The notes below the pieces were generated by a model, which saw only the letters and a list, made by a program, of their open reading frames with translations, made no database searches and was not told the DNA's origin. Below, piece by piece: positions 29,592-51,278 of a stretch of 64,000 nucleotides of DNA. Source of the stretch: Alphaproteobacteria bacterium (GTDB lineage: Bacteria > Pseudomonadota > Alphaproteobacteria > Rhodobacterales > Rhodobacteraceae). How positions within the stretch are numbered: the first letter of the stretch is position 1; every line of letters begins with the position of its first letter. The stretch is from positions 56,437-120,436 of the forward strand of contig JAUHVK010000012.1 in assembly GCA_030425145.1 (NCBI GenBank). The letters are read 5' to 3'. The translations under genes were made by a program, and so were the position numbers.

Positions 29592-30660
29592 TCTGACCCG
29601 ACCGGAAGGCGCTATCGCCGAGGCACGTCGGCAATCTGAAATCTGCAATGCCTGCCGCTACTGCGAGGGCTATTGCGATGTCTTCCCTGCTATGTTCGCA
29701 GAACGGACCTTTACCGATGGCGACATCACGCAGCTCGCCAATCTCTGCCATAACTGCCGGGGCTGTTACTACGCCTGCCAATACACGGAACCTCATGCAT
29801 TTGCGCTCAACATACCCGCCGCCTTGGCAGAGGTTCGGGCGGAAAGCTGGGAACGTTATGCCTGGCCGGGACGTCTTGGCGGCCTGTTCCATCGCTCGGG
29901 CGTGGCTGTCGCGGTGGCACTGGTAGTGGGCATCGCCGCACTCTTCATCGCGATGCGAGCGCTCGTCCCCGCCTCGGGTGAGGGGTTCTATGCCTATCTG
30001 TCCCACAGCATCATGGTGGCGATCTTCATGCCTGCCTTCCTGTTTCCGGTTCTGGCGCTGGTGATGGGCGTACGGCGGTATTGGGCAGAGGTGGGTGGCG
30101 CCCCGCTGCGCTGGGCGCATATGAAAGAGGCCGCTAGGCGAACCGCGTCAATGAAAAACCTGTCCGGCGGGCAGGGGCAGGGCTGCAATTTCGAAAAAGG
30201 CGACCGCTATTCGAACGCTCGGCGCCATGCGCATCAGGCGGTTCTGTACGGGTTTGTTCTGTGTTTCGCCTCCACCAGTTCGGGAACCTTGCTGCATTAT
30301 GTTTTCGGTTTGGAAGCGCCTTACAGCTTCTTCAGCCTTCCAAAGCTCCTTGGTGTTCCGGGCGGCATCCTTCTGACCATTGGTGCGGCAGGTCTGGTTG
30401 CGCTGAAGATGAAGGCTGATCCCGCGCTGGGTTCCGCCTCTCGGTGGGGCGGAGAAATGGGTTTCACGTTGCTTCTTGGCTTCACAGGGTTCAGTGGTCT
30501 TGTTCTTTATGCCGTGACGGGGACATCGCTGGTCTCGCTTATGCTGGCGGTCCACCTTGGGGCGGTCCTCGCACTGTTCCTGCTGACGCCCTATTCGAAG
30601 ATGGCTCACGGTGCCTATCGCTTTGCCGCGCTGGTCCGTGACGCCCAGAGGAGGGCGTGA
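29581..30660 (+). CDS. tcuB: TcuB/CitB-like Fe-S membrane protein
   Basis: Two Cys clusters 'CNACRYCEGYCDVFPAM' and 'CHNCRGCYYACQYTEPHAF' followed by TM segments; ATG 29581. Confidence 0.87.
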   Translation: MSLDLTRPEGAIAEARRQSEICNACRYCEGYCDVFPAMFAERTFTDGDITQLANLCHNCRGCYYACQYTEPHAFALNIPAALAEVRAESWERYAWPGRLGGLFHRSGVAVAVALVVGIAALFIAMRALVPASGEGFYAYLSHSIMVAIFMPAFLFPVLALVMGVRRYWAEVGGAPLRWAHMKEAARRTASMKNLSGGQGQGCNFEKGDRYSNARRHAHQAVLYGFVLCFASTSSGTLLHYVFGLEAPYSFFSLPKLLGVPGGILLTIGAAGLVALKMKADPALGSASRWGGEMGFTLLLGFTGFSGLVLYAVTGTSLVSLMLAVHLGAVLALFLLTPYSKMAHGAYRFAALVRDAQRRA

Positions 30661-31733
30661 TGCGCCTTCTTCTTCTACCCGGTGACGGGATTGGGCCAGA
30701 AATCGTTGCTGCAACGGTCCAGGTTTTGCGGGCCGCGAACGACGTTTTTTCTCTCGACCTGACCTTCGAAGAACGCTCGATTGGATTCGATGCATTGAAG
30801 GCGACCGGTACGACGATGCCGGAAGAGGTGCTTGATGCGGCTCGCGCGGCGGATGGTCTGATCATGGGGCCGGTGTCGCACAATGCGTATCCGCCCCGGT
30901 CGGAAGGTGGTGTGAACCCCTCGGCCATCCTGCGCAGTGGCCTCGATCTCTATGCCAACGTCCGCCCTGCACGAACGCGGGCAGGACTGGATGCACCGAG
31001 CCAGCGAACTTTTGATCTGGTTCTCTTCAGGGAGAATACCGAAGGCTTTTATGCTGACCGCAACATGCCTTCGGGACCGGCTGAATTTGCGCCCGACGCG
31101 GATATGGCGCTGGCCATGCGAAAGATCACCCGTCGTGCATCTGCCCGGATCGCGGACGCCGCATTCGCTGCAGCGGAGGCGCGCGAGGCCCGCAAGGTCA
31201 CGGCTGTCCACAAGGCCAATGTGTTGCGGTTGTCGGATGGGTTGTTCCTCGAAGAAACCCGTGCCGCCGCTGCACGACACCCTTCTGTCAGCTATGATGA
31301 GGTACTGGTCGACGCGATGGCGGCGCATTTGGTGCGGGAACCGGAAAGGTTCGATGTCATCGTCACGACCAACATGTTTGGGGACATCCTGTCCGATCTT
31401 GCGTCGGAGCTCTCGGGTGGGCTTGGACTTGCCGCATCTTTGAACCATGGGGACACTTACGCAATGGCGCAGGCGCAGCACGGATCGGCTCCGGACATTG
31501 CCGGTCAGGGCATCGCCAATCCCTCCTCTCTGATTGGCTCGGCATCCTTGCTCTTAGATTGGCTGGGGCGCACGCGGCAAGAACCTGCGCTGTCCAAGGC
31601 AGGACACGCGATTTCAACGGCGCTTGACCATGCCTTGCGCGACGTGATGGCCAGAACACCTGATATTGGCGGGAAAGGCTCGACGATGGTTTTTGCGAGC
31701 GCTGTAGCTGCACTGATGAAAGGTGAGGGTTGA
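30660..31733 (+). CDS. isocitrate/isopropylmalate dehydrogenase-family protein
   Basis: 'LLLLPGDGIGPEIVAATVQVLRA', 'LVLFRENTEGFYADRN', 'VIVTTNMFGDILSDLASELSGGLGLAASLNHG'. Confidence 0.9.
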   Translation: MRLLLLPGDGIGPEIVAATVQVLRAANDVFSLDLTFEERSIGFDALKATGTTMPEEVLDAARAADGLIMGPVSHNAYPPRSEGGVNPSAILRSGLDLYANVRPARTRAGLDAPSQRTFDLVLFRENTEGFYADRNMPSGPAEFAPDADMALAMRKITRRASARIADAAFAAAEAREARKVTAVHKANVLRLSDGLFLEETRAAAARHPSVSYDEVLVDAMAAHLVREPERFDVIVTTNMFGDILSDLASELSGGLGLAASLNHGDTYAMAQAQHGSAPDIAGQGIANPSSLIGSASLLLDWLGRTRQEPALSKAGHAISTALDHALRDVMARTPDIGGKGSTMVFASAVAALMKGEG

Positions 31734-32404
31734 TGACAGATTTGCGGAGCCTCGCGCGGAACGGAGTACTGCATGTCGCAATAAACACAGGGAACCGAGC
31801 GCTGGTGAAGGCCGAGGGTGACATCTTGGGCGGGGTCAGCCCTGCGCTTGGCCGCCGTCTCGCAGAGCAGATCGGAGCCCGTTTCGAGCCAGTGATCTAC
31901 GATGGGGCAGGCAAGGTCTTCGAAGACGCCGGTGCGGACCGTTGGGATGTCGCCTTTTTGGCGATTGACCCGATGCGGGCAGAGCGGGTCAGCTTTACAC
32001 GCCCCTACCACGTGATCGAAGCAACTTATGCCGTGCGCGCGGATAGCGGTCTGAACGATCCTGAAGACGCGGATCAGGAAGGGGTGCGTGTCCTGACATC
32101 CGTTGGCTCCGCTTACGACATGTACCTGCGGGCGAACCTGTCTAATGCGAAGCTTGATCGGGAGGGAACACCAACGGAGAGTTTCCAGCGGTTCCGGGGC
32201 GGGGCTGGGGACGCGGTTGCAGGTGTCCGGGCCTCGTTGGACCGGTTTTTTTCGGGAGATGAAACGGTGCGCGTCCTGCCGGGTGTGTTGACCAAAGTGG
32301 AACAGGCGATGGTGTTAAATGGACCCGCACATCCTTCGGTCGCTTCTCTCGATACCTTTGTGTCAGAGGCCATTTCCTCGGGGTTCGTGGCGGACCAACT
32401 GTAG
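31733..32404 (+). CDS. periplasmic-binding-fold (SBP_bac_3-like) protein without apparent signal peptide
   Basis: 'GVLHVAINTGNRALV', 'WDVAFLAIDPMRAERVSFTRPYHVIEATYAV'; N-terminus MTDLRSLARNG is not hydrophobic; TGATG coupling to upstream gene. Confidence 0.75.
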   Translation: MTDLRSLARNGVLHVAINTGNRALVKAEGDILGGVSPALGRRLAEQIGARFEPVIYDGAGKVFEDAGADRWDVAFLAIDPMRAERVSFTRPYHVIEATYAVRADSGLNDPEDADQEGVRVLTSVGSAYDMYLRANLSNAKLDREGTPTESFQRFRGGAGDAVAGVRASLDRFFSGDETVRVLPGVLTKVEQAMVLNGPAHPSVASLDTFVSEAISSGFVADQL

Positions 32405-32615: not shown

Positions 32616-34718
32616 ATGCAACCTAATTTTCTTCTAGCCGGTATCGCCGCTCTTAGCTTTTTCGGGGGGCACGCGAGCGCTGAGCGTCTGCAAGCTGCGG
32701 TGATCGGCAACAGTAGCTATAACGTAGCGCCTCTCGCGAACGCGGCTCGAGATGCCGCGACCGTTGCAGAAGCGCTGGCGAACGTAGGCTTTGAGGTCAG
32801 TACATATTTCGACGTAGAGCGCCAAGAAATTGAAACTGTGCTTTCCGAAATTTCCGAGCAGTTTGAAACGGCGGATATCAGTCTTCTCTACTATGCTGGT
32901 CACGCATTCCAGTTCGACGGAAAAAACCAACTCCTCGCCACAGACATCAAGGAACTGACGCGCGAGGAAATCGAGGCAAAGTCCTTTTCGCTCAGCGAAG
33001 TATTGGCCGCCTCTCGGAGCGATGATGTCGGTGTGGGGATGAGCCTCATTATCGTTGATGCTTGTCGTGACGACCCATTTTCGACGGTCGACCAGTCCAT
33101 TCGGCGGGGGCTTGCCTTTGAAGAGAGCGGGCGGGCGGAAACCCTGATTGCCTATTCCACGTCTGCCGGGGAATTGGCATATGATGGTCCTGCTGGCGGC
33201 AATGGCCCTTACGCGCTTGCTTTGACGCGTGCCCTTCAGGACAACAAACCCACGGTGTCGTCTGTCCTGCGTACAATCCGGCGCGATGTGAGAGTGGCGA
33301 CCGGCGGTCTGCAAATCCCCTGGGTTGTGGGATCGATCGAAACAGATCCGGTACTGAGTACGGACGAACAAGAAATCGATCCGATACTGGAAGGTGAGGG
33401 CGAAGTTCCGCCATTGGACACGATTGTCTGGGGGTTCGTACGCAAAGACCTGACAGAAGATACGCTCGCTCAGTTTGTTTTGAACTTTCCCAGTAGCCCG
33501 TTCGCTCCGGAAGCGGATGCGCGTGTCCGGCAGATCAGGGCGAATCGAGAGGGGGACAGCCGAGGCATTGAAGTCATCGGTGCGGCGTCAACCGCGACTC
33601 TGAATGAGTTGGCGGAAGCCCGACAACAGATAACTGCGGATTTTGAATTTAAGCCGGACACGACCCTTCCATCCGAGCTGTTTGAGATTTGGCCACGCGA
33701 ATTGCCGGCGTCGGGTTCGGGGCTTGGGACAATCGTGACCCGTTGCGATCTGCTGGCCGCTGACCCTGCTGATCCTCGCAGGATTGCCCCTCCGATCCGG
33801 AGTGGCTTGGTCAACCTTCGTGAAGCCGCGCGAGCCTGCGGTTTCGCGCTTGCACGCGATCCCGACAATCCGAGACTTCAGTTCCAATTTGGCCGGGTGC
33901 TTGAAATAGCCGGTCGATACGACTGGGCGCGCCTTTATTACCTCCGGGCATCTCGAGAGTATTCGGCGGCTTTGACCAACCTCGGCTACATGGCCATCGA
34001 GGGGATTGGTCAGGAGAAAGACTATGAGGCGGCGGCTGAGTACTACCGCCAAGCAGCAGAAATGGGGAATCTGCGTGCGCGAACCAATCTTGGGACGATG
34101 TACATACGCGGCGAAGGTCTGCCAGAATTGCCCGAAGAGGGAATACTCTGGTACCGCCTCGCGGCCGGGATGGGCTGGGCCAATGCACAGAACGCGCTTG
34201 CCGACCTCTACAAGAAAGGCATTGGCATTGAAAAAGACCTTCAAGCCTCGGCCGCGTTATATCATCTCGCCGCCTCAAACGGACAACGTGCAGCGATGAA
34301 CAATCTCGGAGTGAGCTACCTCAGAGGTCTTGGGGTAGACGCCGACGCGAACACTGCCGTTGTTTGGTTCGACCGGGCCATTCAAGAGGGCGATCGGTTT
34401 GCACCTCGAAATCTGGCCCGTCACCTCATGAAAGCACAAGGCGACCAAGTTGACGGTGGTCGTGTCGTTTCGCTTTTGGAATTGGCTACCAACCGCGGGG
34501 AAAGAAGAGCGTATCTCGACTTGGCCAATATCTACCGGAAGGGTGACTTGGTCGAGAAAGACATGGAACTCGCATATTTGAACGCGCGGCTCGCAGAACT
34601 GAGCAAGGTGAAGAAATCAGACGAGCTTGTAGCAAATCTAAAGAAAAAGCTGTCAGACGCTTCAGTTGAAGAAGTCGAAGCCGAAATCAAGCGGAGGCAG
34701 CGATTGAATGGCATCTGA
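32616..34718 (+). CDS. secreted caspase-like (peptidase C14/metacaspase-type) protein with C-terminal Sel1-like repeats
   Basis: Signal peptide MQPNFLLAGIAALSFFGGHASA; His motif 'LLYYAGHAFQ', Cys motif 'IIVDACRDDPF'; repeats such as 'ALTNLGYMAIEGIGQEKDYEAAAEYYRQAAEMGNLRARTNLGTMYIRGEG'. Confidence 0.85.
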   Translation: MQPNFLLAGIAALSFFGGHASAERLQAAVIGNSSYNVAPLANAARDAATVAEALANVGFEVSTYFDVERQEIETVLSEISEQFETADISLLYYAGHAFQFDGKNQLLATDIKELTREEIEAKSFSLSEVLAASRSDDVGVGMSLIIVDACRDDPFSTVDQSIRRGLAFEESGRAETLIAYSTSAGELAYDGPAGGNGPYALALTRALQDNKPTVSSVLRTIRRDVRVATGGLQIPWVVGSIETDPVLSTDEQEIDPILEGEGEVPPLDTIVWGFVRKDLTEDTLAQFVLNFPSSPFAPEADARVRQIRANREGDSRGIEVIGAASTATLNELAEARQQITADFEFKPDTTLPSELFEIWPRELPASGSGLGTIVTRCDLLAADPADPRRIAPPIRSGLVNLREAARACGFALARDPDNPRLQFQFGRVLEIAGRYDWARLYYLRASREYSAALTNLGYMAIEGIGQEKDYEAAAEYYRQAAEMGNLRARTNLGTMYIRGEGLPELPEEGILWYRLAAGMGWANAQNALADLYKKGIGIEKDLQASAALYHLAASNGQRAAMNNLGVSYLRGLGVDADANTAVVWFDRAIQEGDRFAPRNLARHLMKAQGDQVDGGRVVSLLELATNRGERRAYLDLANIYRKGDLVEKDMELAYLNARLAELSKVKKSDELVANLKKKLSDASVEEVEAEIKRRQRLNGI

Positions 34719-36132
34719 ACTTGATACGACGGCAAGACCAAGCGACGCACGTGATTTTGAAAAAATTTGCCTAGAGCTTGACGCTTTGGAAGCAATATAT
34801 CTGCGGCGCCGTAGGCTTCTTGATGGACCAGAGAATAACGCAATTCGATATATAGAAGAGCGCGCGGACGATCTTGCTTCCCGCGGCGGGCTTGATGCCG
34901 AAGGGTTGATCCATTGGGCGCGAGATAATTCTGAATCAGTCCAGCGCGTGACGCTTAACACTTTTGCTTTGTTGGCTCTTGAGAGAAAGCAGTGGGAAGA
35001 CGCGCGCAAACTGGCAAGCGAGGTCGTTTCTCGTGATCACCATGATCTGGTGTCACAGCGCATCGTTGATGCCGCGAGCGAGAAATGCCGTTTGAACGAA
35101 ACGGAAGCGGATCGTTGGCTTAGTGGACGCAGGTGTTCTGCACCATTCGAACAGTTGGAAACTCGCGTCAACCGAAGCGTTCATTTCTGTTGTTCTGCAT
35201 GGCAGCCCATTCCGATTGGACGGATTGACGGCGAAGACGAAGACTTCTGGACGTCCGAAATCGCAACCGAAATAAGACGGTCCGTTTCCGAAGGAGACTT
35301 CTCTCATTGCAGCAGGTGGCACTGTCCAGCGATCGCGGCACGACGGCTTGCCAAAGCAAAGCCACAGGAAAGCAAGCCAGTTCCGGCGTCACCACGCCGC
35401 GTCATCCTTTCCCATGATAGGTCCTGCAATATTTCATGCCCGAGTTGCCGCAAAGAGCTGATCCTGATTGATCATGCATCCTCTCGGCGTCTGGATGAAT
35501 TATTCGAAGAAAAACTGTTGCCGCTGCTTGCAGACGCAGAGCAAATCAAGGTTACAGGATCGGGCGACCCGTTTGGCAGTCGACATTTTAGAAGCGTACT
35601 AAAAGCCCTTTGCAGCCAAGATGCACCGCCAAGGAGGCTGCAATTACATACGAACGGCCTTTTGGCCAATGAGCGCGCTTGGAACGATTTGGGGCTTTGG
35701 GACAATGTCTCATCTGTTTGGGTGTCGGTAGATGCAGCAGATGCAGAGACATATTCTGAGCTGCGGCGTGGCGGTGATTTCGAACAATTGCTTGGAGCGT
35801 TAAAATTCTTGGGCGTTTTGAGACGAGCGGGCGCCATCGAAAGCCTAAGGTTGGACTTCGTCGTTCAAGCACGGAATTTCGATCAGATGGGTAATTTCGT
35901 GGACTTGGCGCAAAGGGTTGGTGCTGACAAAGTGTACTTCCTGCGCCTGCGGAACTGGGGTCACGAGAGTGCGGAGAACTTCCGAAAGCTCGATGTGTGC
36001 GATCAGGACCATCCGGCATATCACAAGCTCTTGTCGCGCCTCGCGGACCCGCGGCTGGCACAGCCTAACGTGGACCTTGGAAGTCTAGCTACGCTTCGTC
36101 GTGAGGCCGGAACGACCAGAGTATACGCCTAG
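34708..36132 (+). CDS. radical SAM protein with N-terminal helical region and Cys-rich segment ahead of the rSAM domain
   Basis: CxxxCxxC in 'SHDRSCNISCPSCRKE'; 'IKVTGSGDPFGSRHFRSVL', 'LQLHTNGLL'; ATG lies inside the 3' end of the caspase-like gene (11-nt overlap). Confidence 0.85.
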   Translation: MASELDTTARPSDARDFEKICLELDALEAIYLRRRRLLDGPENNAIRYIEERADDLASRGGLDAEGLIHWARDNSESVQRVTLNTFALLALERKQWEDARKLASEVVSRDHHDLVSQRIVDAASEKCRLNETEADRWLSGRRCSAPFEQLETRVNRSVHFCCSAWQPIPIGRIDGEDEDFWTSEIATEIRRSVSEGDFSHCSRWHCPAIAARRLAKAKPQESKPVPASPRRVILSHDRSCNISCPSCRKELILIDHASSRRLDELFEEKLLPLLADAEQIKVTGSGDPFGSRHFRSVLKALCSQDAPPRRLQLHTNGLLANERAWNDLGLWDNVSSVWVSVDAADAETYSELRRGGDFEQLLGALKFLGVLRRAGAIESLRLDFVVQARNFDQMGNFVDLAQRVGADKVYFLRLRNWGHESAENFRKLDVCDQDHPAYHKLLSRLADPRLAQPNVDLGSLATLRREAGTTRVYA

Positions 36133-36137
36133 GGCCC

Positions 36138-36968
36138 ATGCCGCGTATCTTGCTGATCTCTCAGAAACGATGTGGCACGAATTGGTTAATGGAGCTGATC
36201 GGTGCGCTCCCAAAGACGATATGTTTTCGTGACGTCTTCAACCCCGGTGGGGCATTTGGCCTGAAGCCCGGTAGAAATGCCGCTGCGGCCGCAATTGCAG
36301 AACATCTTGACTTGCCGATCCTAGAAGAGCGTGACCCGGATCTAATTGACTTCGTGCGAACAGAGCCCGAGCTGTTCTTGCGGTTTGTCGAGGCAGCAAT
36401 CCAGCGTAAGGGCTGTTGTTGGTGCGGTGCGACGATTTTCGATGGCCATTTGTCGCCGCAACAGTTTCGATCAGTGATCTCCGCCAAGGGAACACTTGTT
36501 GTGCTCCTCAAGAGACGAAATCTTGATCGGGCCATTTCGCTCAAAAAAGCGCGTTTGACCGGTGCATGGAAGGGTTTGGATACGTCAGAGATCCGCCCTG
36601 CAGTCACATGGCAAGATGTGGACAATGCGATTCAGGAAAGCAAAAGCTGGTTTGATTTCGTAGAAGATTGTCTTCAGGTGAATCAAATTCCATTTGTTGA
36701 ATTGCGCTATGAGGATCACATCTTGGAGGGACCGGAGCATGTCTTGCTTCATCTTGCTAGCCATACTTCCAATTTTCCTTGGGCCGAAGGCGAGCCAGTT
36801 CCAATACCTTCAATTCAGGCACAAGACCTGACGAGAGACGTATTCGAGAGGATTTCCAACGGAGCTGAGCTCAAGAAAGCGCTGCAAGAGCATGGGATAT
36901 TCGGTGAGGCAATGAATTATCCAGGGCGCATTTCACGCTCGATATCCTCGATGGTCGGTAGGGGTTGA
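36138..36968 (+). CDS. sulfotransferase-family protein (Stf0-like)
   Basis: N-terminal PAPS-loop-like 'ISQKRCGTNWLMELIGAL'; 'VVLLKRRNLDRAISLKKARLTGAWKG' resembles the Stf0 3'-phosphate region. Confidence 0.75.
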   Translation: MPRILLISQKRCGTNWLMELIGALPKTICFRDVFNPGGAFGLKPGRNAAAAAIAEHLDLPILEERDPDLIDFVRTEPELFLRFVEAAIQRKGCCWCGATIFDGHLSPQQFRSVISAKGTLVVLLKRRNLDRAISLKKARLTGAWKGLDTSEIRPAVTWQDVDNAIQESKSWFDFVEDCLQVNQIPFVELRYEDHILEGPEHVLLHLASHTSNFPWAEGEPVPIPSIQAQDLTRDVFERISNGAELKKALQEHGIFGEAMNYPGRISRSISSMVGRG

Positions 36969-37405
36969 GTTGGTTCTACGGATGCCCCAAAGCGTTCTAG
37001 GAACACGTCGATTGACTCGCCCACGTTGACAACCATGTCAGGGTTCCAAGAGCGTTGTATCCTGTCGATCCGGTTGGACACATAACGAGTCCAATCCAAA
37101 GTGGTCAGCTTGCTGCGGTCACTTTGACTGGGTAGCGTCTCGATAAAGCTTCCAAGAATGCTTGCGCTTTGGAACGCAAGATCGTCGATCACCAACACGA
37201 TTTCCGCATGCTCTGCGAATGACTTGATCGCATCATGAACCTTAGGGTCATCTGCAGAGCATCCGGCTGCCCAAAGCAAGGCGACAGGACGCTTGCGTGG
37301 TTGTTTGGAGCGAAAGTCCAGTGACCCCACGCTGAGACGTTTGTTCACGCCGACAGCGGTCAGGCCTAACTTCATGATCGCTTTGCGTAGGGGCATTCGC
37401 GACAT
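36917..37405 (-). CDS. hypothetical protein (162 aa)
   Basis: Start ATG 37405 directly follows the upstream gene stop (TGACATG); no recognised domain. Confidence 0.6.
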   Translation of the reverse strand: MSRMPLRKAIMKLGLTAVGVNKRLSVGSLDFRSKQPRKRPVALLWAAGCSADDPKVHDAIKSFAEHAEIVLVIDDLAFQSASILGSFIETLPSQSDRSKLTTLDWTRYVSNRIDRIQRSWNPDMVVNVGESIDVFLERFGASVEPTQPLPTIEDIEREMRPG

Positions 37406-37406
37406 G

Positions 37407-39602
37407 TCAACGCTGCTCCGCTGGCACGGTCCGTGCCGCGAACTCGATTGCACGTGCCGCAACTTCTGCACCGTTAAACTTTTGCCCAATTGACTGCATT
37501 CTAGCGCGCATGCTGTTCCTTTCGTCTGGTCGATCCATCATCTGATGAAGCGCGAAATCGAGTCCGTAACTGTCGCCACAGCGCGCAGACAAACCCCATC
37601 CGCAACGTGCTGCATAATCTGCACGCGCCTCCTGTAGATCCATTTCCGGTGCGGTATTCGGAACAAAAATGGTCGGCAAGGCCGCAGAGATGTTCTCGTG
37701 GTAGCTGTTGTAGCCACATGCGCTCACAGCGAAGTCAAACGCCTGAAGGTAGGTCGCAAATGGGAATACCGACACAAGCCTGTGTCTTGCATCCAAGCTT
37801 TCCACTTGTGTCAGCTTAACTGGAGATATCAGTTCGACAACCTGCCAACTTGGCTTGTCAAGTATTGTAGATAAGATGCGATCCCGCGCAGGTTCCATAT
37901 CGAAATTGCTTCCCGCGCCGAGTTGGACCAAAGCCAGATTTGCCTCTTGATCGAGTCCAAGTACCCGACGCGCCGTTTGGCGGGACAGTCCGTTTTCTGG
38001 TTGTACGGACAATATCGGCGGGGTCGTCAAAACGGGCTCAGTGTCGTGGTTTTCAAACGCCGGACCTTGAATTGCTGCAATTTCGCGAGGTTCAATAACA
38101 AGATCGAACTGTCTGCCGCGTTGTAGTGCTGTTTTATCCGGCCGTCGCCATAGGCCTCGCCGGACCCAAATCCTTGTAAGTTCGGGGACACCTTTCATTG
38201 CATCCAGAAGCCCCTGGTAGGGCATGTTCCCATCAAAGACCAACGCCTTAGGTCGATAGAATGCGAGCGCTTCGGCCAGCTCCTCGGCGAACCATTGGTT
38301 CCAGTTTTTGGTTTCTGCGGATACCTGCCGGTGAAACGCCCGATACTCTGTGACATAACCTGCGTTGGAGGCAAACTTCGCTGCGCGTGATAGGGTGAAG
38401 AAGACCGTTTGGAACCCAAGTGGCATAGCATCAGCGATCGCCAATTGCCTTGAAAGGTGGCCAAGCCCAACGCCATTGGAGGTCACCGCGAGAATGCGCT
38501 CTGGGACTGGTCCGTGTGTAGGGGCTGGGGTGAGGTGCGGCTGTCCCTTTGGTACTGGGTTTTGGCCAACCAGTGCTTCAAACCGCTCCCGGTAAGAGAC
38601 CAATCCGTGCTTCTGTTTGACGAATTCAAGTGAAGCTTTCGAAGCCTGGTCTGCTAGAGCCCGATCGGTTGCAAGCCGTTGGTAAATTCCAGGCGCCTCG
38701 ACAGGGTTAGCGTAAAGCGCGGCCGAGCCGAAGTTTTCTTTGAAATGTGGTGGAAGGACCACCGGCAGACCGACCGCCATGGCCTCCAAGATGTTATACC
38801 CAAGGGCTTCAATCCAATTTTCCGAGTGAAAATAAGAGTACGCGTCGAGAGTTGCTAGAAACCTAGGTGCAGCTTGATCGTCGAACGGCGCGGCAAACCA
38901 GTTCATCGGCCAGGGGGTAAACGCTTCCCTAACTTCATCGCCCACGCCGAGCATGTGAAACTCATACTCGGCCACTTCCGGATAGACCGTGCGCGCGACC
39001 TCGGCAGAAGGCCATTTTAAAAGATCGGGACGAGAGTGCCGGCCTATTTTGAATGCCCCATTTGTGCATTCCCGAGAGGCGCGTGGCCATTCGTCGAGGT
39101 CAATCAAGTTAGTCCAAGTGGAAGGCGAAACTGCGGCTGCAGCCTTGGACCCCAAGAAGCTCTTGCGAACGGTCTCGCTGACCGGCAGGATTTTGAGGTC
39201 TTTTCCGAAAAGGTCCCGAACAAGCTGTATCGCACGGTCAGCGGAGTATTGCGGCTTTCCCCAGCGGTCGACGAGCGGGTGATGGGCAATAAGCCCGACA
39301 TGCTCTGGATTGAGTAAGGGATTGCCAGCCAAAGGCTCGTCCAGCAGGTAAGGATGGCAATACAAAGCCAAACGACACGAGACCTCAAGATTCCGTGGCA
39401 AAACAGGCGTTTGTGTCTCGCTAATCGCAGCCGATATCTTGGAGTTGGGAATACGGCGGCGAGCTAAGCGCGAGGCACGTATAGGCCTCAAAGCAATGCG
39501 CAAACCTGCACGGGCTGCTGCCTTTATTTCATACGCAAGTGAAGAAGAGGACCCACCCGGAAAGCAGGGATCTGCCACAAATACTATATCGTGGTCGGTC
39601 AT
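37407..39602 (-). CDS. two-module glycosyltransferase (GT4-like N-terminal half, MurG/GT28-like C-terminal half)
   Basis: N-half 'ENWIEALGYNILEAMAVGLPVVLP'; C-half 'VTSNGVGLGHLSRQLAIADAM' and 'FDFAVSACGYNSYHENISAALPTIFVPN'. Confidence 0.8.
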   Translation of the reverse strand: MTDHDIVFVADPCFPGGSSSSLAYEIKAAARAGLRIALRPIRASRLARRRIPNSKISAAISETQTPVLPRNLEVSCRLALYCHPYLLDEPLAGNPLLNPEHVGLIAHHPLVDRWGKPQYSADRAIQLVRDLFGKDLKILPVSETVRKSFLGSKAAAAVSPSTWTNLIDLDEWPRASRECTNGAFKIGRHSRPDLLKWPSAEVARTVYPEVAEYEFHMLGVGDEVREAFTPWPMNWFAAPFDDQAAPRFLATLDAYSYFHSENWIEALGYNILEAMAVGLPVVLPPHFKENFGSAALYANPVEAPGIYQRLATDRALADQASKASLEFVKQKHGLVSYRERFEALVGQNPVPKGQPHLTPAPTHGPVPERILAVTSNGVGLGHLSRQLAIADAMPLGFQTVFFTLSRAAKFASNAGYVTEYRAFHRQVSAETKNWNQWFAEELAEALAFYRPKALVFDGNMPYQGLLDAMKGVPELTRIWVRRGLWRRPDKTALQRGRQFDLVIEPREIAAIQGPAFENHDTEPVLTTPPILSVQPENGLSRQTARRVLGLDQEANLALVQLGAGSNFDMEPARDRILSTILDKPSWQVVELISPVKLTQVESLDARHRLVSVFPFATYLQAFDFAVSACGYNSYHENISAALPTIFVPNTAPEMDLQEARADYAARCGWGLSARCGDSYGLDFALHQMMDRPDERNSMRARMQSIGQKFNGAEVAARAIEFAARTVPAEQR

Positions 39603-39613
39603 CTAAAATTCTG

Positions 39614-39808
39614 TCAGTAGGCCTGCTCTTCTAAGAAATCCTTGAATTGCTCGAGCCGTCTTTCATCTCCTGCCGGGTCATCGCCGTTTGATTGCAACGG
39701 CCACCACAGCGAAGTTTTCGATGACGCTTGTACTTTTGTGGGGAAACCGCTCCCCAGTGCAATCAATGCGGCTCCAATGGCCATGATCGTCGCTCGAAAA
39801 TGCTTCAT
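39614..39808 (-). CDS. small secreted peptide (64 aa; ~36-aa predicted mature form)
   Basis: MKHFRATIMAIGAALIALGSGFPTKVQA signal-like leader then SSKTSLWWPLQSNGDDPAGDERRLEQFKDFLEEQAY; GGAGATT upstream; 11 nt before the glycosyltransferase gene. Confidence 0.6.
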   Translation of the reverse strand: MKHFRATIMAIGAALIALGSGFPTKVQASSKTSLWWPLQSNGDDPAGDERRLEQFKDFLEEQAY

Positions 39809-39917: not shown

Positions 39918-40847
39918 TCAATGAGACAGCTGAGCCTCCCAAATTCTAGTTTCCACGGCATGCCTGACATGGCTGAGAAGTGCGTCACGTATCGCTTCTG
40001 ACGCGAAAGTCGGTGGGCGAGACGCCAACCTGCACAGATACAATGTTCGCGACAACTCAGGGCTGGTGATCGGTCGCGCCTTGACAGTGCCTCGGTCCAA
40101 CTGATCCTGCATGAATAACCTTGTCCCGATGACACAGCCCAGCCCGGCCTCGATCGAGCCGGCAATCGCCTGAACAGAATTCATCTGCAGGATTGCCCGT
40201 GTCTCGATCTTTTTCAGAAGCATCACGTCATCCATGATGGCGCGTGCAGACAGGCCCTGGCGAAGCAAAATTATCGGTAACTCGAGCAATTCGGCAAAGG
40301 TGATTGGATCGTCGGTTTTCCCTATGACATCCGGTCGGCCGACGCAGACCATCCGTTCCTCCAGCACAGCTTCAGATTGGAATGCGGGGTCTGCAGGTGG
40401 GTTGTAGACCAGCGCCATATCCACGTCCGATGACAACAGGTGCGGCAGAGCCACTCCGGAAAGGCTTTCTGTCAGAGCAAGCTGGACCTTGGGGAAATCC
40501 TGCACGACCTGCGTGATGAAGGGCACGCCAATTGCCTTAACCGCTGAATACGACATACCGACCGACACCGGACCCGAGATTTTCCCGGCGGTATCCGTCA
40601 TATCCGTTTCCGCTTGCGCGACTGCGCGCAAAATCGACCGGGCATGCTCATATAGCCGATGCCCGGCTGCGGTCGGCTCCATCCCACGCGGTTTTCGCAA
40701 GAAAAGGGGCGCACCGAACCGGGCCTCCAATTGCGCCAGATGGTGGCTGAGCGCCGACGCCGCCACTCGAAGCTGGGTGGAGGCCTGCGCAAGCGAACCT
40801 TGTTCGTAGATGGCCGAGAAATATTGCAGTTGGCGAGTATCAAGCAT
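39918..40847 (-). CDS. LysR-family regulator
   Basis: 'MLDTRQLQYFSAIYEQGSLAQASTQLRVAASALSHHLAQLEARFGAPLFLRKPRGMEPTAAGHRLYEH'. Confidence 0.9.
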   Translation of the reverse strand: MLDTRQLQYFSAIYEQGSLAQASTQLRVAASALSHHLAQLEARFGAPLFLRKPRGMEPTAAGHRLYEHARSILRAVAQAETDMTDTAGKISGPVSVGMSYSAVKAIGVPFITQVVQDFPKVQLALTESLSGVALPHLLSSDVDMALVYNPPADPAFQSEAVLEERMVCVGRPDVIGKTDDPITFAELLELPIILLRQGLSARAIMDDVMLLKKIETRAILQMNSVQAIAGSIEAGLGCVIGTRLFMQDQLDRGTVKARPITSPELSRTLYLCRLASRPPTFASEAIRDALLSHVRHAVETRIWEAQLSH

Positions 40848-40932
40848 TCTGGTTTCCAGAAGGGTTGCGTCGAAACACTATAATATCCTGTCGCCCATCG
40901 TTTGGCTATGCTCCGAGTCGGGAGGAAAATTA

Positions 40933-42117
40933 ATGACATCTGAGATCAGGCCGCTGGCTGGACTGCGCGTAGTTGAGATGACGCACATGATCATGGGGCC
41001 GACCTGTGGCATGTTCCTAGGGTTCTTGGGTGCAGAGGTGATCAAGGTTGAGCCGCCCGAGGGCGACAAGACCCGCGACCTGACCGGCATGGGTCGCGGC
41101 TTCTATCCTACCTTCAATCGCGGCAAGAAGAGTGTCACGCTGGACCTGAAGACCGAGGCGGGCAAGGCCGCGCTGCACCGTTTGCTGGAAACGGCGGATG
41201 TCTTTGTCGAAAATTTCCGTGACCAGTCTCTTGCCAAGATGGGCTTCTCGCCTGAGGTGCTGAAGGCGCGGTATCCGTCTCTGATCGTGTCCTCTCTCAA
41301 AGGCTTCCTCAAGGGGCCGTACGAGAACCGCACGGCGATGGATGAGGTCGTGCAGATGATGACCGGCATGGCTTATATGACCGGACCAACTGGCCGACCT
41401 CTGCGGATCGGGTCATCTGCCAACGACATCATGGGTGGCCTCTTTGGCGCTTTCGCTGTGCTGGCCGCACTGCTGGAGCGCGCGAAAGACGGCAAGGGGC
41501 ACGTTCTTCGTACTGGGCTTTTCGAGAACTGCCTGTTCCTAGTTGCCCAGCACATGGTGCAGTTCGACATCGAAGGGCGCGAGGCCCCACCGATGCCGGA
41601 GCGGGAATTCTCCTGGCCCGTCTATGATATATTTGAAACCGCCGACGCGCGGCAGATCTTCGTCGGGGCCGTGACCGAAGGGCAATGGATCACACTCTGC
41701 GATATCCTCGGGCTGGCCGAACTAAAGTCTGATCCCCGCTTGATTAGTCGAATGGACCAGATCAACGCCCGCGACTGGACGGTTCCAATTGTGGCTGAGG
41801 CCGTCCGTAGCCGTAACTTCGCTGACCTGATCGCGGCCTTCGAACCCGCGGGCATTCCGTTTTCGCCAATTCACCGACCGGCGGAGATGTATGATGATCC
41901 ACACGTGAACCGGCCTGGTGGCCTATTTCCCTCGACTCTCCCTGAGGGGCAAACCTACCGCGCCCCGATTATGCCGTTCGAGATCGACGATCAGCCGATC
42001 CACGGTGACAACCTCAACATCGTCGGGATCGGCGCGGACACACAGGAGGTGCTAGCCGCAGTCGGGATGACCCAGTCAGAGATTGTCGAGGCAAGCGGGG
42101 AAGGGCGTCAGGAATGA
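40933..42117 (+). CDS. CaiB/BaiF-family CoA-transferase (class III)
   Basis: 'PLAGLRVVEMTHMIMGPTCGMFLGFLGAEVIKVEPPEGDKTRDL', 'GFYPTFNRGKKSVTLDLKTEAGKAAL'; GGAGGAAAATTA RBS before ATG 40933. Confidence 0.92.
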   Translation: MTSEIRPLAGLRVVEMTHMIMGPTCGMFLGFLGAEVIKVEPPEGDKTRDLTGMGRGFYPTFNRGKKSVTLDLKTEAGKAALHRLLETADVFVENFRDQSLAKMGFSPEVLKARYPSLIVSSLKGFLKGPYENRTAMDEVVQMMTGMAYMTGPTGRPLRIGSSANDIMGGLFGAFAVLAALLERAKDGKGHVLRTGLFENCLFLVAQHMVQFDIEGREAPPMPEREFSWPVYDIFETADARQIFVGAVTEGQWITLCDILGLAELKSDPRLISRMDQINARDWTVPIVAEAVRSRNFADLIAAFEPAGIPFSPIHRPAEMYDDPHVNRPGGLFPSTLPEGQTYRAPIMPFEIDDQPIHGDNLNIVGIGADTQEVLAAVGMTQSEIVEASGEGRQE

Positions 42118-46167: not shown

Positions 46168-48825
46168 TCATCTCACCGAAAACGCGGTGAGAACTTGTCC
46201 GAAGACCAAAGGCACAAAGCTCATCCCGGCTGCAACCGCAAGGCCCACGAGCGTCGGCGGCGGGAGATCGAGCACACGTGAAAGGGCGGGGATCCAGACT
46301 GCGCCCGCGATCAGGAGAAGGCAAAGCGCGATGGCGAGCCAGACAAAGATATTGCGCGTGATTTCGTTCAGGAAAAGCCCGTCATTGGGTTTGCGCACGT
46401 TGAAGACGTTCCAAAGCTGGGCCAGTGCAATCGTTAGAAATGCGACTGTGATGGCCTCGCCCTGACCAAGCATGAGGTGGAACTGGGCAATAGAATAGGC
46501 TGCGAGAGTTGAACAAGCGATCACCAGACCAAGAGCCGAAATCCTGACCCATGTCTTCCGATCCACAATCGGTTCGTTGGCATCGCGCGGTGGTTCCTGC
46601 ATGACCGAGGCGTTGCCCTGACCCAAGCCAAGCGCGAAGGCCGGAAACACATCCGTCACGAGATTGAGAAACAGGATCTGCAATGGCAGCAAGGGTGCCG
46701 CCATCCCCAACCCCAATGCAAACGCGACAACCAGAACCTCACTCACGTTACAGGACATAAGATAGACGACGAATTTCCGGATATTTGCAAAGATGATGCG
46801 GCCTTGCATGACTGCATCCGCAATCGTGTCGAAGGCATCGTCCAGCAGGATGATATCTGACGCCTCGCGCGCGACCTGCGTTCCGCGTTCGCCCATTGCG
46901 ATGCCGATATCAGCTTTCTTAAGGGCGGGTGCGTCGTTCACGCCGTCACCCGTCATCGCTATGATCCGGCCCTGCCTTTGGTGAAATGCGACGAGGTCCA
47001 GTTTGTTAGCCGGGGCAAAGCGAGCAAAGACCCGCGCGGTGTTGAGGCGATCTGACAGGGCAGGGTCCAAGTGTTCAGAGTCGAAATCCTGCAGAAGCTG
47101 ACCTTCCACCACGTCAGGATCAGCCTCGACGATCCCAGCCTCTACGGCGATGGCGGCTGCGGTTTCCGCATGATCCCCGGTGATCATCACGACGTCGATC
47201 CCTGCACCTCGACAAGCGGCGATGGCTGCTGGAACCTCATCCCGAAGTGGGTCGGCAAGACAAACGAGACCAATCCATTCGAGGTTTTCGAACGGGTCGG
47301 TGCACGGTGCGTCACCGCAGCGTTTTGCCAGCCCCAAGCATCGCAGACCTCGCGCCGTTTCGGTCTGGGTTTTGGCCAACCACTGAGCCCTCGCCTCATT
47401 ATCCATCGCGATCGAACCGGATGGCGTGAGAATTGACGCACAGTGCGCGATCACGGCCTCCGGTGCACCTTTGACGAGCCTGACACTGCCGTCATTATTC
47501 GGGTGATCGGTGGCCATCATGAGCCGATCCGGATCAAACGGGTAGGTGTTCGCCGCTTCGCCGACGTCACAATCCGCCATCGCATCGAACCCTGCGATCT
47601 GTGCGGCGCGCAGAAGGGCAACCTCCATCGGGTCTGCCGAAGTCGCCGCAACGCCCTCCACCCCCGGAGGAATTGAATTGCAGAGCGACCCCACGCAAAG
47701 CGCCCATTTCAGCGACACGTCGTCCAGTCGGCCAGGCGCTTCCATGCCGGAGGTCTCAACCGATCCCTCGGGCAGGACGTAGCGCTCGACCTCCATGCGA
47801 TTTTCAGTCAACGTTCCCGTCTTGTCGGTCAGGATCATTGTGGTCGATCCCAGCGTTTCTACAGACGAGAGCCGGTTCACCAGCGCATTGCGCCGCGCCA
47901 TGCGCAACATTCCCCGGGCAAGGCAGAGCGTCGCAACGATCGGTAAGCCTTCGGGGATAGCGGCCACGGCAAGCGCCACACCGGTCTGGATCATGTCGGC
48001 AAGAGGCTGTTGCCTCATCACCCCGAGTGACACCGTTAGAATAACGAGCAGCAAGGTGAGGCCGATCAGCCGATGTCCCAGTTGGTCGAGGCGCTTTTCA
48101 AGGGGGGTTGCGTCGTCGACCACGCTTTCGATCATCTGAGCGATCTGACCGATTTCGGTATTCATTCCGGTGGCGACGACCACGGCCACTGCCGTGCCTT
48201 GCGTCACAGCCGTGCCTTTGTAGGCCATCGACGTCCGATCGTTCAGGACGGTGCCTTGCGCGACCGCTTTTTCGTTCTTGAGAACCGGAACGGATTCCCC
48301 GGTGAGTGTGGATTCATCACAATGTAGGTTCACGGATGAGACCAGCCGAAGATCGGCTGACACAAGGTCGCCGACCTCCAAGAGCACGATGTCACCAGGA
48401 ACAAGTTCCTGGATCGGTACATCCAAGACCTTTCCCGACCGACGCACATGCGCAACGACTTCGGCAATCGCGTAGAGTGCTTCCATGGACCGCGCGGCCC
48501 GTAGTTCGGTGACAAAGCCTATGGTCGCGTTGATGAGCAGCACGAGAAGGACGGCGATCGCCTCGACGTAATCGCCAAGCACCAACGACAACACAACCGC
48601 AGCAGCGAGAAGCCAGACAACGATGCTGTTGAACTGATGAACGAGGATGCCGAACAGGCTTTTTGTCTTCGTACGTCCCAGCAGGTTCGGGCCGTATCGG
48701 GCCAGCCGCTCGGCCGCTTGGACCTCGCTAAGTCCTTGCTCTGGAACGACCCCCAACTTGGCCGCGACATCGGTCGCGGACAGCGCGAAGGCGTTGCTCA
48801 CATGTGTTTCGATCAGATCACTCAC
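46168..48825 (-). CDS. P-type cation-transporting ATPase (P2A/SERCA-like)
   Basis: 'DKTGTLTENRMEVERY', 'VAAIPEGLPIVATLCLARGMLRMARRNALVNRLSSVETLGS', 'MTGDGVNDAPALKKADIGIAMG'. Confidence 0.93.
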   Translation of the reverse strand: MSDLIETHVSNAFALSATDVAAKLGVVPEQGLSEVQAAERLARYGPNLLGRTKTKSLFGILVHQFNSIVVWLLAAAVVLSLVLGDYVEAIAVLLVLLINATIGFVTELRAARSMEALYAIAEVVAHVRRSGKVLDVPIQELVPGDIVLLEVGDLVSADLRLVSSVNLHCDESTLTGESVPVLKNEKAVAQGTVLNDRTSMAYKGTAVTQGTAVAVVVATGMNTEIGQIAQMIESVVDDATPLEKRLDQLGHRLIGLTLLLVILTVSLGVMRQQPLADMIQTGVALAVAAIPEGLPIVATLCLARGMLRMARRNALVNRLSSVETLGSTTMILTDKTGTLTENRMEVERYVLPEGSVETSGMEAPGRLDDVSLKWALCVGSLCNSIPPGVEGVAATSADPMEVALLRAAQIAGFDAMADCDVGEAANTYPFDPDRLMMATDHPNNDGSVRLVKGAPEAVIAHCASILTPSGSIAMDNEARAQWLAKTQTETARGLRCLGLAKRCGDAPCTDPFENLEWIGLVCLADPLRDEVPAAIAACRGAGIDVVMITGDHAETAAAIAVEAGIVEADPDVVEGQLLQDFDSEHLDPALSDRLNTARVFARFAPANKLDLVAFHQRQGRIIAMTGDGVNDAPALKKADIGIAMGERGTQVAREASDIILLDDAFDTIADAVMQGRIIFANIRKFVVYLMSCNVSEVLVVAFALGLGMAAPLLPLQILFLNLVTDVFPAFALGLGQGNASVMQEPPRDANEPIVDRKTWVRISALGLVIACSTLAAYSIAQFHLMLGQGEAITVAFLTIALAQLWNVFNVRKPNDGLFLNEITRNIFVWLAIALCLLLIAGAVWIPALSRVLDLPPPTLVGLAVAAGMSFVPLVFGQVLTAFSVR

Positions 48826-48834
48826 ACCACGACA

Positions 48835-51222
48835 TTATCGTGCGCGTTCCGCATCCGCGACGTGGGATTTTACCTTCTGAAAGCTGTCCGGGGTTACCGA
48901 AATGGAATCTATCCCGAACTCCACCAGAGTTCGAGCAAACTCTGGGTAGTTCGAAGGAGCTTGACCGCAAAGACCGACCTTGGTTCCAGCGCCATGTGCC
49001 TTCTCAATGACGGTCCGGATCATCCACTGAACGGCGGCATGACGTTCGTCAAAGAGCGGCGCAAGCCGGTCGCTGTCCCGGTCTATGCCAAGGGTCAGTT
49101 GGGTGAGATCATTCGAACCTATTGAAAACCCGTCGAACCGTTCGGCGAATGCCTCGGCAAGAATGACGTTCGACGGCACTTCGCACATCACGTAAACCTG
49201 CAATCCGTTCTCCCCGCGCACAAGTCCTTCCTCGGCCATGACAGCCAGAACACGGTCTGCTTCTTCAGGGGTCCGGCAGAACGGAACCATTACCAGAACA
49301 TTGTCGAACCCGGCTTGTTCACGCAGCCGGTGAATCGCTCGGCATTCCAGTCGGAATCCATCGACATAGGCCGGGTCATAGTACCGCGATGCGCCGCGCC
49401 ACCCGATCATCGGGTTTGACTCCTCAAGTTCGAACTGCCGCCCACCCAAAAGGTCGGCGTACTCGTTCGTCTTGAAGTCGCTCAAGCGAAGGATCATCGG
49501 GTTAGGATAAGCGACGGCGGCAATCCGTGACAGACCCAGTGCCAACTGATCGACGAAGTATTCTGCCTTGTCTTCGTACCCTCTGGTCAGGGCCTCGATG
49601 TCCTGCCGAATTTCGGCATCCTGGATCTTGTCGAAGTGTAGCAGCGCCATCGGATGTACGCGGATAGTATTTGAGATGACGAACTCCATACGCGCCAGAC
49701 CTACGCCATCCATTGGAAGCCGCCACCAGCGCGCCGCAATCGCCGGATTGGCGAGGTTCAGCATGACCTTGGTTTTCGTGGCAGGAATCGCGTCGAGCTT
49801 CACATCTTCGATCGTGAACTCTGCGTATCCCTCGTAGACCTGACCTTCATCACCTTCGGCACAAGATACGGTCACTTCCTGTTGGTCATGCAGGACATGA
49901 GTTGCATCACCACAGCCGACGATGGCGGGCACGCCCAATTCGCGGCTGACAATCGCAGCATGGCTGGTTCTGCCGCCGTGATCGGTGATAATCGCCGAGG
50001 CCCTTTTCATCACCGGCACCCAATCGGGGTCCGTCGTCGATGTGACGAGGATCGAGCCGTCCACAAAGTCGTCAATGTCTTTGACATCCTCGATCAGACA
50101 GACCCGGCCAGTCGCCACTTGTTCGCCCACGGACAGACCAGTGGTCACGACAGGGCCATGGGTTCCAATAGTGAAACGCCTCAACATTCCTGCAGCGACC
50201 CGCGACTGCACCGTCTCGGGACGCGCCTGCACGATATAAAGTCGGCCGGTTTCGCCGTCTTTGGCCCATTCCATGTCCATCGGCTGACCGTAATGCTCTT
50301 CGATGGTCGCCGCCTGACGTGCCAGATCAAGCACCTCGTCATCGGATAGAACGAACTTGCCGCGTTCGGCTTTCGAAGTGGGTACGTTGCGTACAGGCTC
50401 TGGAGCGCCCTTGCCAGCATAGATCATCTTGATCTCTTTCGCCCCAAGCTTCTTCTCGATGATCGGCTTGACCCCTGCTCTGGTAAGGAAGGGTTTGTAA
50501 ACTTGGAATTCGTCCGGAGTCACAGCACCCTGAACGACGTTTTCACCCAGCCCCCATGCGGCGCTGATCAGGATGATCTTGTCGAAACCGGTTTCCGTGT
50601 CGATCGAAAACATGACGCCCGATCCGCCGATATCCGATCGCACCATCTGCTGGACCCCGACAGAAAGCGCGACATCCAGGTGATTGAACCCGCGCAGCTT
50701 GCGATAGGTGATCGCGCGATCCGTGAAAAGAGAAGCATAACACTTGCGACATGCCGCCAGAAGATCGTCCTCGCCCGATACGTTCAGGTAGGTCTCCTGC
50801 TGTCCGGCAAAACTGGCATCAGGGAGATCCTCGGCCGTGGCGCTGGACCGGACAGCTACGGACACATTCGGCACGCCCGCCCTTTCGGACAGGTCACGAT
50901 ATGCGCTCCGGATCGCAGCCTCGGTCGATGCGGGCCAATCACCCGTGACGATCGTGTCCCGGATGTTTTGGCCTGCGTCATGCAGGCTGATCTTTCCGGC
51001 GTCGTAATCCGCGAGATAGGCCGCGATTGCTTTGTTAAGGCCATTTGCCTCAAGAAACATCCGAAATGCGTCGGATGTGGTTGCGAACCCCGGCGGGACC
51101 TGAATGCCCCTGGCACCAAGTTCCTGCACCATCTCGCCCAGCGATGAATTCTTGCCACCGACCAGAGCGACGTCCTCGCGGCGCAGGTTGTCGAAGGAAA
51201 TAACCTCTGTCTTCGGATTCAT
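48835..51222 (-). CDS. ppsA: phosphoenolpyruvate synthase
   Basis: 'VALVGGKNSSLGEMVQELGARGIQVPPGFATTSDAF', 'DHGGRTSHAAIVSRELGVPAIVGCGDAT', 'GFSIGSNDLTQLTLGIDRDSDRLAPLFDER'; ATG 51222. Confidence 0.95.
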   Translation of the reverse strand: MNPKTEVISFDNLRREDVALVGGKNSSLGEMVQELGARGIQVPPGFATTSDAFRMFLEANGLNKAIAAYLADYDAGKISLHDAGQNIRDTIVTGDWPASTEAAIRSAYRDLSERAGVPNVSVAVRSSATAEDLPDASFAGQQETYLNVSGEDDLLAACRKCYASLFTDRAITYRKLRGFNHLDVALSVGVQQMVRSDIGGSGVMFSIDTETGFDKIILISAAWGLGENVVQGAVTPDEFQVYKPFLTRAGVKPIIEKKLGAKEIKMIYAGKGAPEPVRNVPTSKAERGKFVLSDDEVLDLARQAATIEEHYGQPMDMEWAKDGETGRLYIVQARPETVQSRVAAGMLRRFTIGTHGPVVTTGLSVGEQVATGRVCLIEDVKDIDDFVDGSILVTSTTDPDWVPVMKRASAIITDHGGRTSHAAIVSRELGVPAIVGCGDATHVLHDQQEVTVSCAEGDEGQVYEGYAEFTIEDVKLDAIPATKTKVMLNLANPAIAARWWRLPMDGVGLARMEFVISNTIRVHPMALLHFDKIQDAEIRQDIEALTRGYEDKAEYFVDQLALGLSRIAAVAYPNPMILRLSDFKTNEYADLLGGRQFELEESNPMIGWRGASRYYDPAYVDGFRLECRAIHRLREQAGFDNVLVMVPFCRTPEEADRVLAVMAEEGLVRGENGLQVYVMCEVPSNVILAEAFAERFDGFSIGSNDLTQLTLGIDRDSDRLAPLFDERHAAVQWMIRTVIEKAHGAGTKVGLCGQAPSNYPEFARTLVEFGIDSISVTPDSFQKVKSHVADAERAR

Positions 51223-51278
51223 GGACTCATCCCCTGCCAAAACTTCTACGCAGTTTATCGCGGGGGCGTTACGGAACA

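What the first reader, a model, noticed from the sequence alone, without database searches (positions are those of the whole stretch)
32616..39808. Accessory island: secreted caspase-like/Sel1 protein + radical SAM + Stf0-like sulfotransferase, convergent with a two-module glycosyltransferase, an orphan protein and a tiny secreted peptide
Sequence shows two tight convergent transcription units. Plus: caspase-like (His 'YYAGH', Cys 'DACRD'), overlapping radical SAM (CxxxCxxC), then sulfotransferase 5 nt later. Minus: 64-aa signal-peptide ORF, glycosyltransferase, 162-aa orphan. I do not recognise this combination as a named system. Inference: export and maturation of a modified surface peptide or sulfated glycoconjugate, with the caspase-like protein acting in processing or as a toxic/surveillance effector. 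The block sits between two catabolic regions, as an insertion would.
Basis: partly seen in the sequence, partly recalled or inferred. Interest (0 to 1): 0.75.

Follow-up and report, generated by a model that had tools for sequence, protein, structure and literature searches.

The report
Caspase–glycosyltransferase cassette with Tyr-ended secreted peptide
The six genes are one example of a previously undescribed, repeatedly inherited gene set in alphaproteobacteria in which a double glycosyltransferase travels with a small exported protein that almost always ends in tyrosine, usually together with a secreted caspase-type protease and swappable decorating enzymes such as a radical SAM enzyme and a sulfotransferase.

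Summary
In detail: two tight convergent units, A–B–C (secreted caspase-Sel1, radical SAM, sulfotransferase) and F–E–D (64-aa secreted peptide, double glycosyltransferase, "orphan"). The block is a real, recurrent, modular cassette, not a chance assembly. Homologues of all six genes recur together in another Marivita and in two further Rhodobacteraceae genera. The core E+D+A+F recurs in about 25 Rhodobacterales and Rhizobiales loci. A caspase lies near 25 of 28 full-length E genes and near 0 of 10 half-length ones. B and C are optional tailoring enzymes; elsewhere there are methyltransferase, GT25, PRTase or heparinase genes. F is the key. In 27 of 30 loci it is a small exported protein or lipoprotein whose LAST residue is Tyr, and the other three have Tyr one or two residues earlier. 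The rule passed 5 of 5 loci fetched after it was stated, including one with E split in two and no caspase. D resembles the acceptor half of E's second module. Best model: E and D glycosylate the terminal Tyr of F in the cytoplasm, tailoring enzymes decorate the product, and it is exported to a periplasmic compartment with the active caspase. Eight loci adjoin type VI secretion genes. No described system matches. The mechanism is inferred.

The parts
32616..34718 (+). A: secreted caspase-type protease (Peptidase_C14) with TPR-like linker and Sel1 repeats, 700 aa, N-terminal signal peptide
   Evidence: Pfam; homologues near 25 of 28 full-length E genes; nearest solved caspase folds are MALT1 paracaspases
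32901..33065 (+). catalytic His99 (YYAGH) to Cys153 (DACRD) of A
   Evidence: dyad kept in all but one of the cassette and neighbouring caspases aligned; lost only in the S. meliloti copy
34708..36132 (+). B: radical SAM enzyme with an N-terminal SPASM/twitch-type Cys domain; optional tailoring enzyme
   Evidence: radical SAM genes also in L010, L011, L012, L013, L018, L062, L070, L072; fused to C in L011
35134..35448 (+). invariant Cys of B: C143, C161, C162, C201, C206 (auxiliary cluster) and C240-x3-C244-x2-C247 (radical SAM)
   Evidence: alignment A1
36138..36968 (+). C: sulfotransferase, NodH-like by nearest solved structure; optional tailoring enzyme
   Evidence: other sulfotransferases in L069, L070, L072, L074
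36917..37405 (-). D: 162-aa core protein; profile resembles the N-terminal (acceptor) half of E's second GT module; elsewhere fused to a PRTase or a GT25
   Evidence: hhalign to E residues 361-469, E 3.7e-4 with 22 sequences and 0.012 with 9
37407..39602 (-). E: double glycosyltransferase: module 1 GT4-like (residues 1-350), module 2 GT1/GT28-like (361-731)
   Evidence: the two modules are separate genes in Pelagibacterium
39614..39808 (-). F: 64-aa secreted peptide, signal peptide ending ...KVQA, C-terminus ...LEEQAY
   Evidence: equivalent small secreted ORF in nearly every cassette
39617..39619 (-). codon of the C-terminal Tyr of F
   Evidence: terminal Tyr in 27 of 30 curated F proteins, Tyr within the last three residues in the rest

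Best explanation
The island is one variant of a modular cassette that makes a glycosylated small exported protein. Core: F (acceptor), E (two glycosyltransferase modules) and D (a free-standing domain resembling a glycosyltransferase acceptor half). Proposed steps: (1) E with D glycosylates the phenol of F's C-terminal tyrosine in the cytoplasm, and the second module extends it (inferred). (2) Swappable tailoring enzymes decorate the product; here these are the radical SAM B and the sulfotransferase C (inferred from recurrence and from the natural B-C fusion). (3) F is exported by Sec, in some lineages as a lipoprotein (signal peptide or lipobox seen in the sequence). (4) In the periplasm the secreted caspase A, whose catalytic dyad is conserved and whose linker in several lineages carries the same helical-hairpin motif as many F proteins, binds and processes or senses F (inferred). 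Frequent linkage to type VI secretion suggests a role in cell-cell contact or competition (inferred).
For: Shown: co-inheritance of A, B, C, D, E and F with falling identities in the same order of relatives. A caspase is near 25 of 28 full-length E genes and 0 of 10 half-length ones, p = 6e-7. A small secreted ORF ending in Tyr is in 23 of 25 full-length-E loci and 2 of 12 controls, p = 1e-5. Prediction test: 5 of 5 loci fetched after the rule was stated. The Pelagibacterium locus has E split in two, no caspase, and still a Tyr-ending peptide (...DGDSIY), so the Tyr tracks the GT pair and not the caspase. Terminal Tyr occurs in 3 of 187 other cassette proteins. Module 2's best solved relatives are GT1/GT28 enzymes: YjiC, MurG, OleD. 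D aligns with module 2's N-half. Natural B-C fusion in L011. Dyad conserved. Precedent: mycofactocin carries its sugar chain on the hydroxyl of a C-terminal Tyr (PMC7491314).
Against: No biochemistry. The acceptor and the sugar are unknown. Cytoplasmic glycosylation before Sec export is less usual than periplasmic routes. A phenol-only target would not need Tyr to be exactly C-terminal; another reader of the C-terminus (ligation, amidation, binding) is possible. Three F proteins carry one or two residues after the Tyr. No basic cleavage site is enriched upstream of the Tyr (p = 0.27), so caspase cleavage of F is unsupported. The D structure prediction failed (pLDDT 40.6). The D-E similarity is weak. 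Several F proteins were picked from lists partly by their Tyr end.
Confidence: 0.5

Rival explanations
1. A small surface-polysaccharide locus: E and the other GT/tailoring enzymes build a lipid-linked or capsular sulfated glycan, and F is a structural lipoprotein or anchor for it, with the caspase controlling assembly.
For: Module-1 relatives sit in polysaccharide clusters, e.g. Antarctobacter with GT2, GT4, a sulfotransferase and an LPS biosynthesis gene. NDP-sugar dehydrogenases, GT2, GT4 and GT25 occur in some cassettes. C is closest to an LPS sulfotransferase.
Against: No flippase, polymerase, Wza/Wzc or priming transferase gene was seen in the cassette neighbourhoods examined. It does not explain the near-invariant C-terminal Tyr of F or why the Tyr peptide follows the GT pair.
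Confidence: 0.2
2. A RiPP-like pathway comparable to mycofactocin: the radical SAM enzyme modifies the C-terminal Tyr of F, E glycosylates the product, and the caspase is the leader peptidase.
For: The mycofactocin core is a C-terminal Val-Tyr modified by a radical SAM enzyme and glycosylated on the Tyr hydroxyl (PMC7491314). Radical SAM enzymes recur in about ten cassettes.
Against: No radical SAM gene was seen in the Rhizobium and Shinella cassettes whose F still ends in Tyr. B scores 35.5 bits against a cut-off of 265 for the mycofactocin maturase. F carries a Sec signal, and the caspase is exported while the enzymes are not. No enriched cleavage site.
Confidence: 0.12
3. A conflict or type VI secretion module: the caspase is a periplasmic effector or guard (or immunity component) and the glycosyltransferases, sulfotransferase and F mask or mark self.
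For: T6SS genes adjoin L018, L020, L024, L071, L072, L080, L111 and L112. TssB is in 12 of 16 family genomes with full-length E against 63 of 286 others, p = 2e-5. Caspases are common effectors in bacterial conflict systems (PMC7159879).
Against: Most Rhodobacterales cassettes have no T6SS gene within reach, and in the window genome the T6SS is on another contig. The only PADLOC hit is a weak caspase match, E 1.1e-5. No toxin-immunity pairing was seen.
Confidence: 0.15

Closest known systems
Mycofactocin (MftA/MftC/MftF)
   Same: Small ribosomal precursor with a C-terminal Tyr, a radical SAM enzyme, and a glycosyltransferase that puts sugars on the Tyr hydroxyl
   Different: F is exported and carries a helical-hairpin module in many lineages; the GT is a double GT4/GT28-type enzyme, not GT2; radical SAM is optional; a secreted caspase is present; no MftB/D/E counterpart was identified
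Prokaryotic caspase homologues (meta/ortho-caspases) with Sel1 repeats
   Same: Peptidase_C14 fold with intact His-Cys dyad and Sel1 repeats; a signal-peptide-like helix is known for some (PMC3501461)
   Different: Consistently tied to a double glycosyltransferase, D and a Tyr-ending peptide, a setting not found in the papers searched
RaxX/RaxST tyrosine-sulfated peptide (own knowledge, not tested here)
   Same: Small bacterial peptide with a functional Tyr and a sulfotransferase
   Different: Sulfotransferase is optional here; the Tyr is the last residue; E, D and the caspase have no counterpart in that system
Cytoplasmic protein glycosylation before Sec export (HMW1C, serine-rich adhesins; own knowledge)
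   Same: A soluble glycosyltransferase modifying a protein that is then exported
   Different: Small acceptor with a single conserved C-terminal Tyr, a double GT plus D, an associated caspase

Membership tests
Mycofactocin biosynthesis | radical SAM maturase of the MftC family | tested here: not met
   TIGR03962 35.5 bits, cut-off 265
Mycofactocin biosynthesis | precursor ending in Val-Tyr | tested here: inconclusive
   F ends in Tyr but the preceding residue varies (A, L, N, S, V, P...)
Peptidase_C14 caspases | C14 fold with catalytic His and Cys | tested here: met
   Pfam 97.6 bits against cut-off 21.4; His99 and Cys153 aligned across loci
Peptidase_C14 caspases | proteolytic activity | not testable with these tools
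   needs purified protein
Anti-phage caspase defence (PADLOC) | match to a PADLOC caspase model and a complete system | tested here: not met
   one weak caspase hit, E 1.1e-5, no other component
Type VI secretion accessory module | located in or beside T6SS genes | tested here: inconclusive
   eight loci adjacent, genome-level enrichment p = 2e-5, but not adjacent in the window and most others
PAPS sulfotransferases (Stf0/NodH-like) | sulfotransferase profile match | tested here: inconclusive
   window C is below Pfam cut-off, L010 homologue above it (35.3 against 22); nearest structure NodH 9vki E 1.7e-8
Radical SAM with N-terminal twitch/SPASM (NF033640) | score above family cut-off | tested here: not met
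   53.6 bits, cut-off 170; the Cys pattern is present
Capsule/LPS locus | flippase, polymerase or transporter genes beside the GTs | tested here: inconclusive
   none recognised beside the window copy or the annotated cassette loci, but not every neighbour was annotated

The most novel reading that the evidence does not exclude
A new class of ribosomally made, exported 'tyrosine-cap' proteins: the C-terminal Tyr is glycosylated in the cytoplasm by a dedicated double glycosyltransferase plus acceptor-domain partner, diversified lineage by lineage by plug-in enzymes (radical SAM, sulfotransferases, methyltransferase, GT25, PRTase), and read or processed outside by a co-inherited active caspase, often linked to type VI secretion.
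Probability: 0.35. Interest if true: 0.88.

Novelty: categorically new. Interest (0 to 1): 0.74.

Why it matters
If the model holds, it gives many bacterial secreted caspases a concrete genetic partner set and a candidate substrate, an open question since prokaryotic caspases were found, and adds a protein-modification system with a very simple recognition rule (Tyr as the last residue). The rule makes the acceptor easy to find in genomes: unannotated F genes were found this way in two Shinella plasmids, and the rule held in loci fetched later. Knocking out E, D or F, with mass spectrometry of F, would settle it directly.

Tried and rejected
Chance co-location: rejected by recurrence and controls. 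Caspase cleaving F after a basic residue just before the Tyr: basic residues are not enriched (p = 0.27), so not claimed. Known defence system: PADLOC gives only a weak caspase match. Empty-site comparison in the genus: not possible, because neighbouring genes 31730-32404 and 39918-40847 are also missing, or only distantly matched, in the other 16 genomes. AlphaFold of D: mean pLDDT 40.6, unusable. AlphaFold of E: not finished in time. The genome-contig scan with B found only one locus. Literature searches for the combination gave no described system.

Full report
WHAT IS THERE. Plus strand: A (caspase-Sel1, ATG 32616 to 34718), B (radical SAM, 34708-36132), C (sulfotransferase, 36138-36968). 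Minus strand: F (64-aa secreted peptide, 39808-39614), E (731-aa glycosyltransferase, 39602-37407), D (162 aa, 37405-36917). Pfam confirms A strongly and B, C and E weakly; D and F have no family. The block has lower GC than its flanks.

IT IS A UNIT. In a second Marivita-type genome (contig CANNCS010000157.1, L006) all six genes recur in the same arrangement. Identities to the window are about A 87, B 84, C 71, D 68, E 78 and F 61 percent. In L010 (another Rhodobacteraceae genus) the same two convergent units recur: A, B, C on one strand and F, E, D on the other. In L011 the radical SAM and sulfotransferase are one fused protein, and A, D, F and E lie together. B is rare: 5 of 397 family genomes, 2 of 17 in the genus. 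Full-length E is broader: about 16 of 397 in the family and 4 of 386 across the class, the window genome included in both.

THE CORE AND THE VARIABLE PART. Profiles of A-E were run over the flanks of every E hit fetched. Loci with full-length, two-module E nearly always also carry A and D, in Rhodobacterales and in Rhizobium, Sinorhizobium and Shinella plasmids. A caspase is near 25 of 28 full-length E genes and 0 of 10 half-length ones (p = 6e-7; the 28/10 table was compiled by hand). Tailoring genes vary. Radical SAM genes occur in the window, L006, L010, L011, L012, L018, L062, L070 and L072. Sulfotransferases of three Pfam types occur in the window, L006, L010, L011, L069, L070, L072 and L074. 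Nucleotide-sugar dehydrogenases, GT2, GT4, GT25, methyltransferase, heparinase-like and phosphoribosyltransferase genes occur elsewhere. D is also found fused to the PRTase (R. etli) and to the GT25 (Paracoccus).

THE PEPTIDE. F sequences differ greatly except for an export signal (signal peptide or lipobox), in many cases one helical-hairpin motif, and the last residue: tyrosine. A scan for small secreted ORFs that ignored the last residue found one ending in Tyr in 23 of 25 full-length-E loci and 2 of 12 control loci (p = 1e-5). In L012 the counted ORF is probably spurious (its likely F ends ...GYDGYDG), so 22 of 25 is the safer count. The curated set has 27 of 30 ending exactly in Tyr, and three with Tyr one or two residues before the end...LYSR...PYN...YDG. 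Among 187 A-E proteins in these loci only 3 end in Tyr. The rule was then tested on loci fetched afterwards: R. gallicum, S. americanum, Rhizobium sp. 32-5/1, R. etli 8C-3 and Pelagibacterium, 5 of 5. R. etli 8C-3 is close to R. gallicum, so about four are independent. In Pelagibacterium the two GT modules are separate genes, identity is only about 26%, no caspase is near, and the peptide directly upstream of module 1 ends ...DGDSIY. The Tyr therefore tracks the glycosyltransferase pair. Nothing else in the tail is fixed, and basic residues are not enriched (p = 0.27).

MECHANISM. E's second module is closest, among solved structures, to GT1/GT28 enzymes such as YjiC, MurG and OleD; its first resembles GT4 enzymes. 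D's profile aligns over about 100 columns with the N-terminal half of module 2 (E 3.7e-4 with 22 sequences, 0.012 with 9), the half that binds acceptors in GT-B enzymes (established knowledge). The hairpin motif of F recurs in the linker of several of the caspases. The caspase dyad is intact in all but one of the sequences aligned; the exception is S. meliloti, where a neighbouring methyltransferase-GT gene is also split, i.e. a decaying copy. I infer that E and D glycosylate F on its terminal Tyr, that B and C decorate the product here, and that F is exported to where A works. Mycofactocin is a precedent for sugars on the hydroxyl of a C-terminal Tyr (PMC7491314), but the cassette fails membership in that family. 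Shown: gene linkage, conserved residues, export signals, the terminal Tyr. Inferred: every reaction and the link between F and A.

TYPE VI LINK. T6SS genes adjoin eight loci: Paracoccus, four Rhizobium/Sinorhizobium loci, and three other Rhodobacteraceae. TssB occurs in 12 of 16 family genomes with full-length E against 63 of 286 others (p = 2e-5); half-length-E genomes show no significant excess (6 of 18, p = 0.18; read off one search's listing, so approximate). The window genome has a T6SS on another contig. Genome size and relatedness were not corrected for.

KNOWN OR NEW. Full-text searches for the combination gave nothing. The prokaryotic caspase survey describes Sel1 architectures but the passages read mention no glycosyltransferase setting (PMC3501461). 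The library covers open-licence papers only. I rate the gene system as categorically new, while its chemistry may prove a variant of protein or peptide glycosylation.

Noticed in passing
G000 contig C105:92572-93024 (L109): The window's genome carries a type VI secretion locus (TssB/TssC, VgrG-like) on another contig, not beside the island.
   Followed up: partly
L085:6818-9499: A divergent relative in another Rhodobacteraceae genome: only the GT28-type module, a D-like 116-aa protein and an F-like peptide ending ...VPYS, no caspase found.
   Followed up: partly
L022, L023 (Sinorhizobium meliloti plasmids): Decaying copy: caspase dyad lost and the methyltransferase-GT gene split, yet F still ends ...SRNY.
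   Followed up: partly
L021:4566-4760 and L025:5560-5760 (Shinella plasmids): Small lipoprotein genes ending ...ARNY and ...RNRNY with no gene listed in the plasmid tables, found by the terminal-Tyr pattern.
   Followed up: yes
window 30657-32404 and 39918-42117: Flanking genes (isopropylmalate/isocitrate-dehydrogenase-type, solute-binding protein; LysR, CoA-transferase III) include ones absent from nearly all other genomes of the genus, so the wider neighbourhood is accessory too.
   Followed up: partly
window 46168-51279: P-type cation ATPase next to a PPDK/PEP-synthase-like protein on the minus strand.
   Followed up: no
L013:1990-5167: A B-type radical SAM gene beside an asparagine-synthase-like gene, FlgI/FlgL-like genes and a T6SS-type KAS, in a genome (G062) whose full-length E cassette is on another contig.
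   Followed up: no
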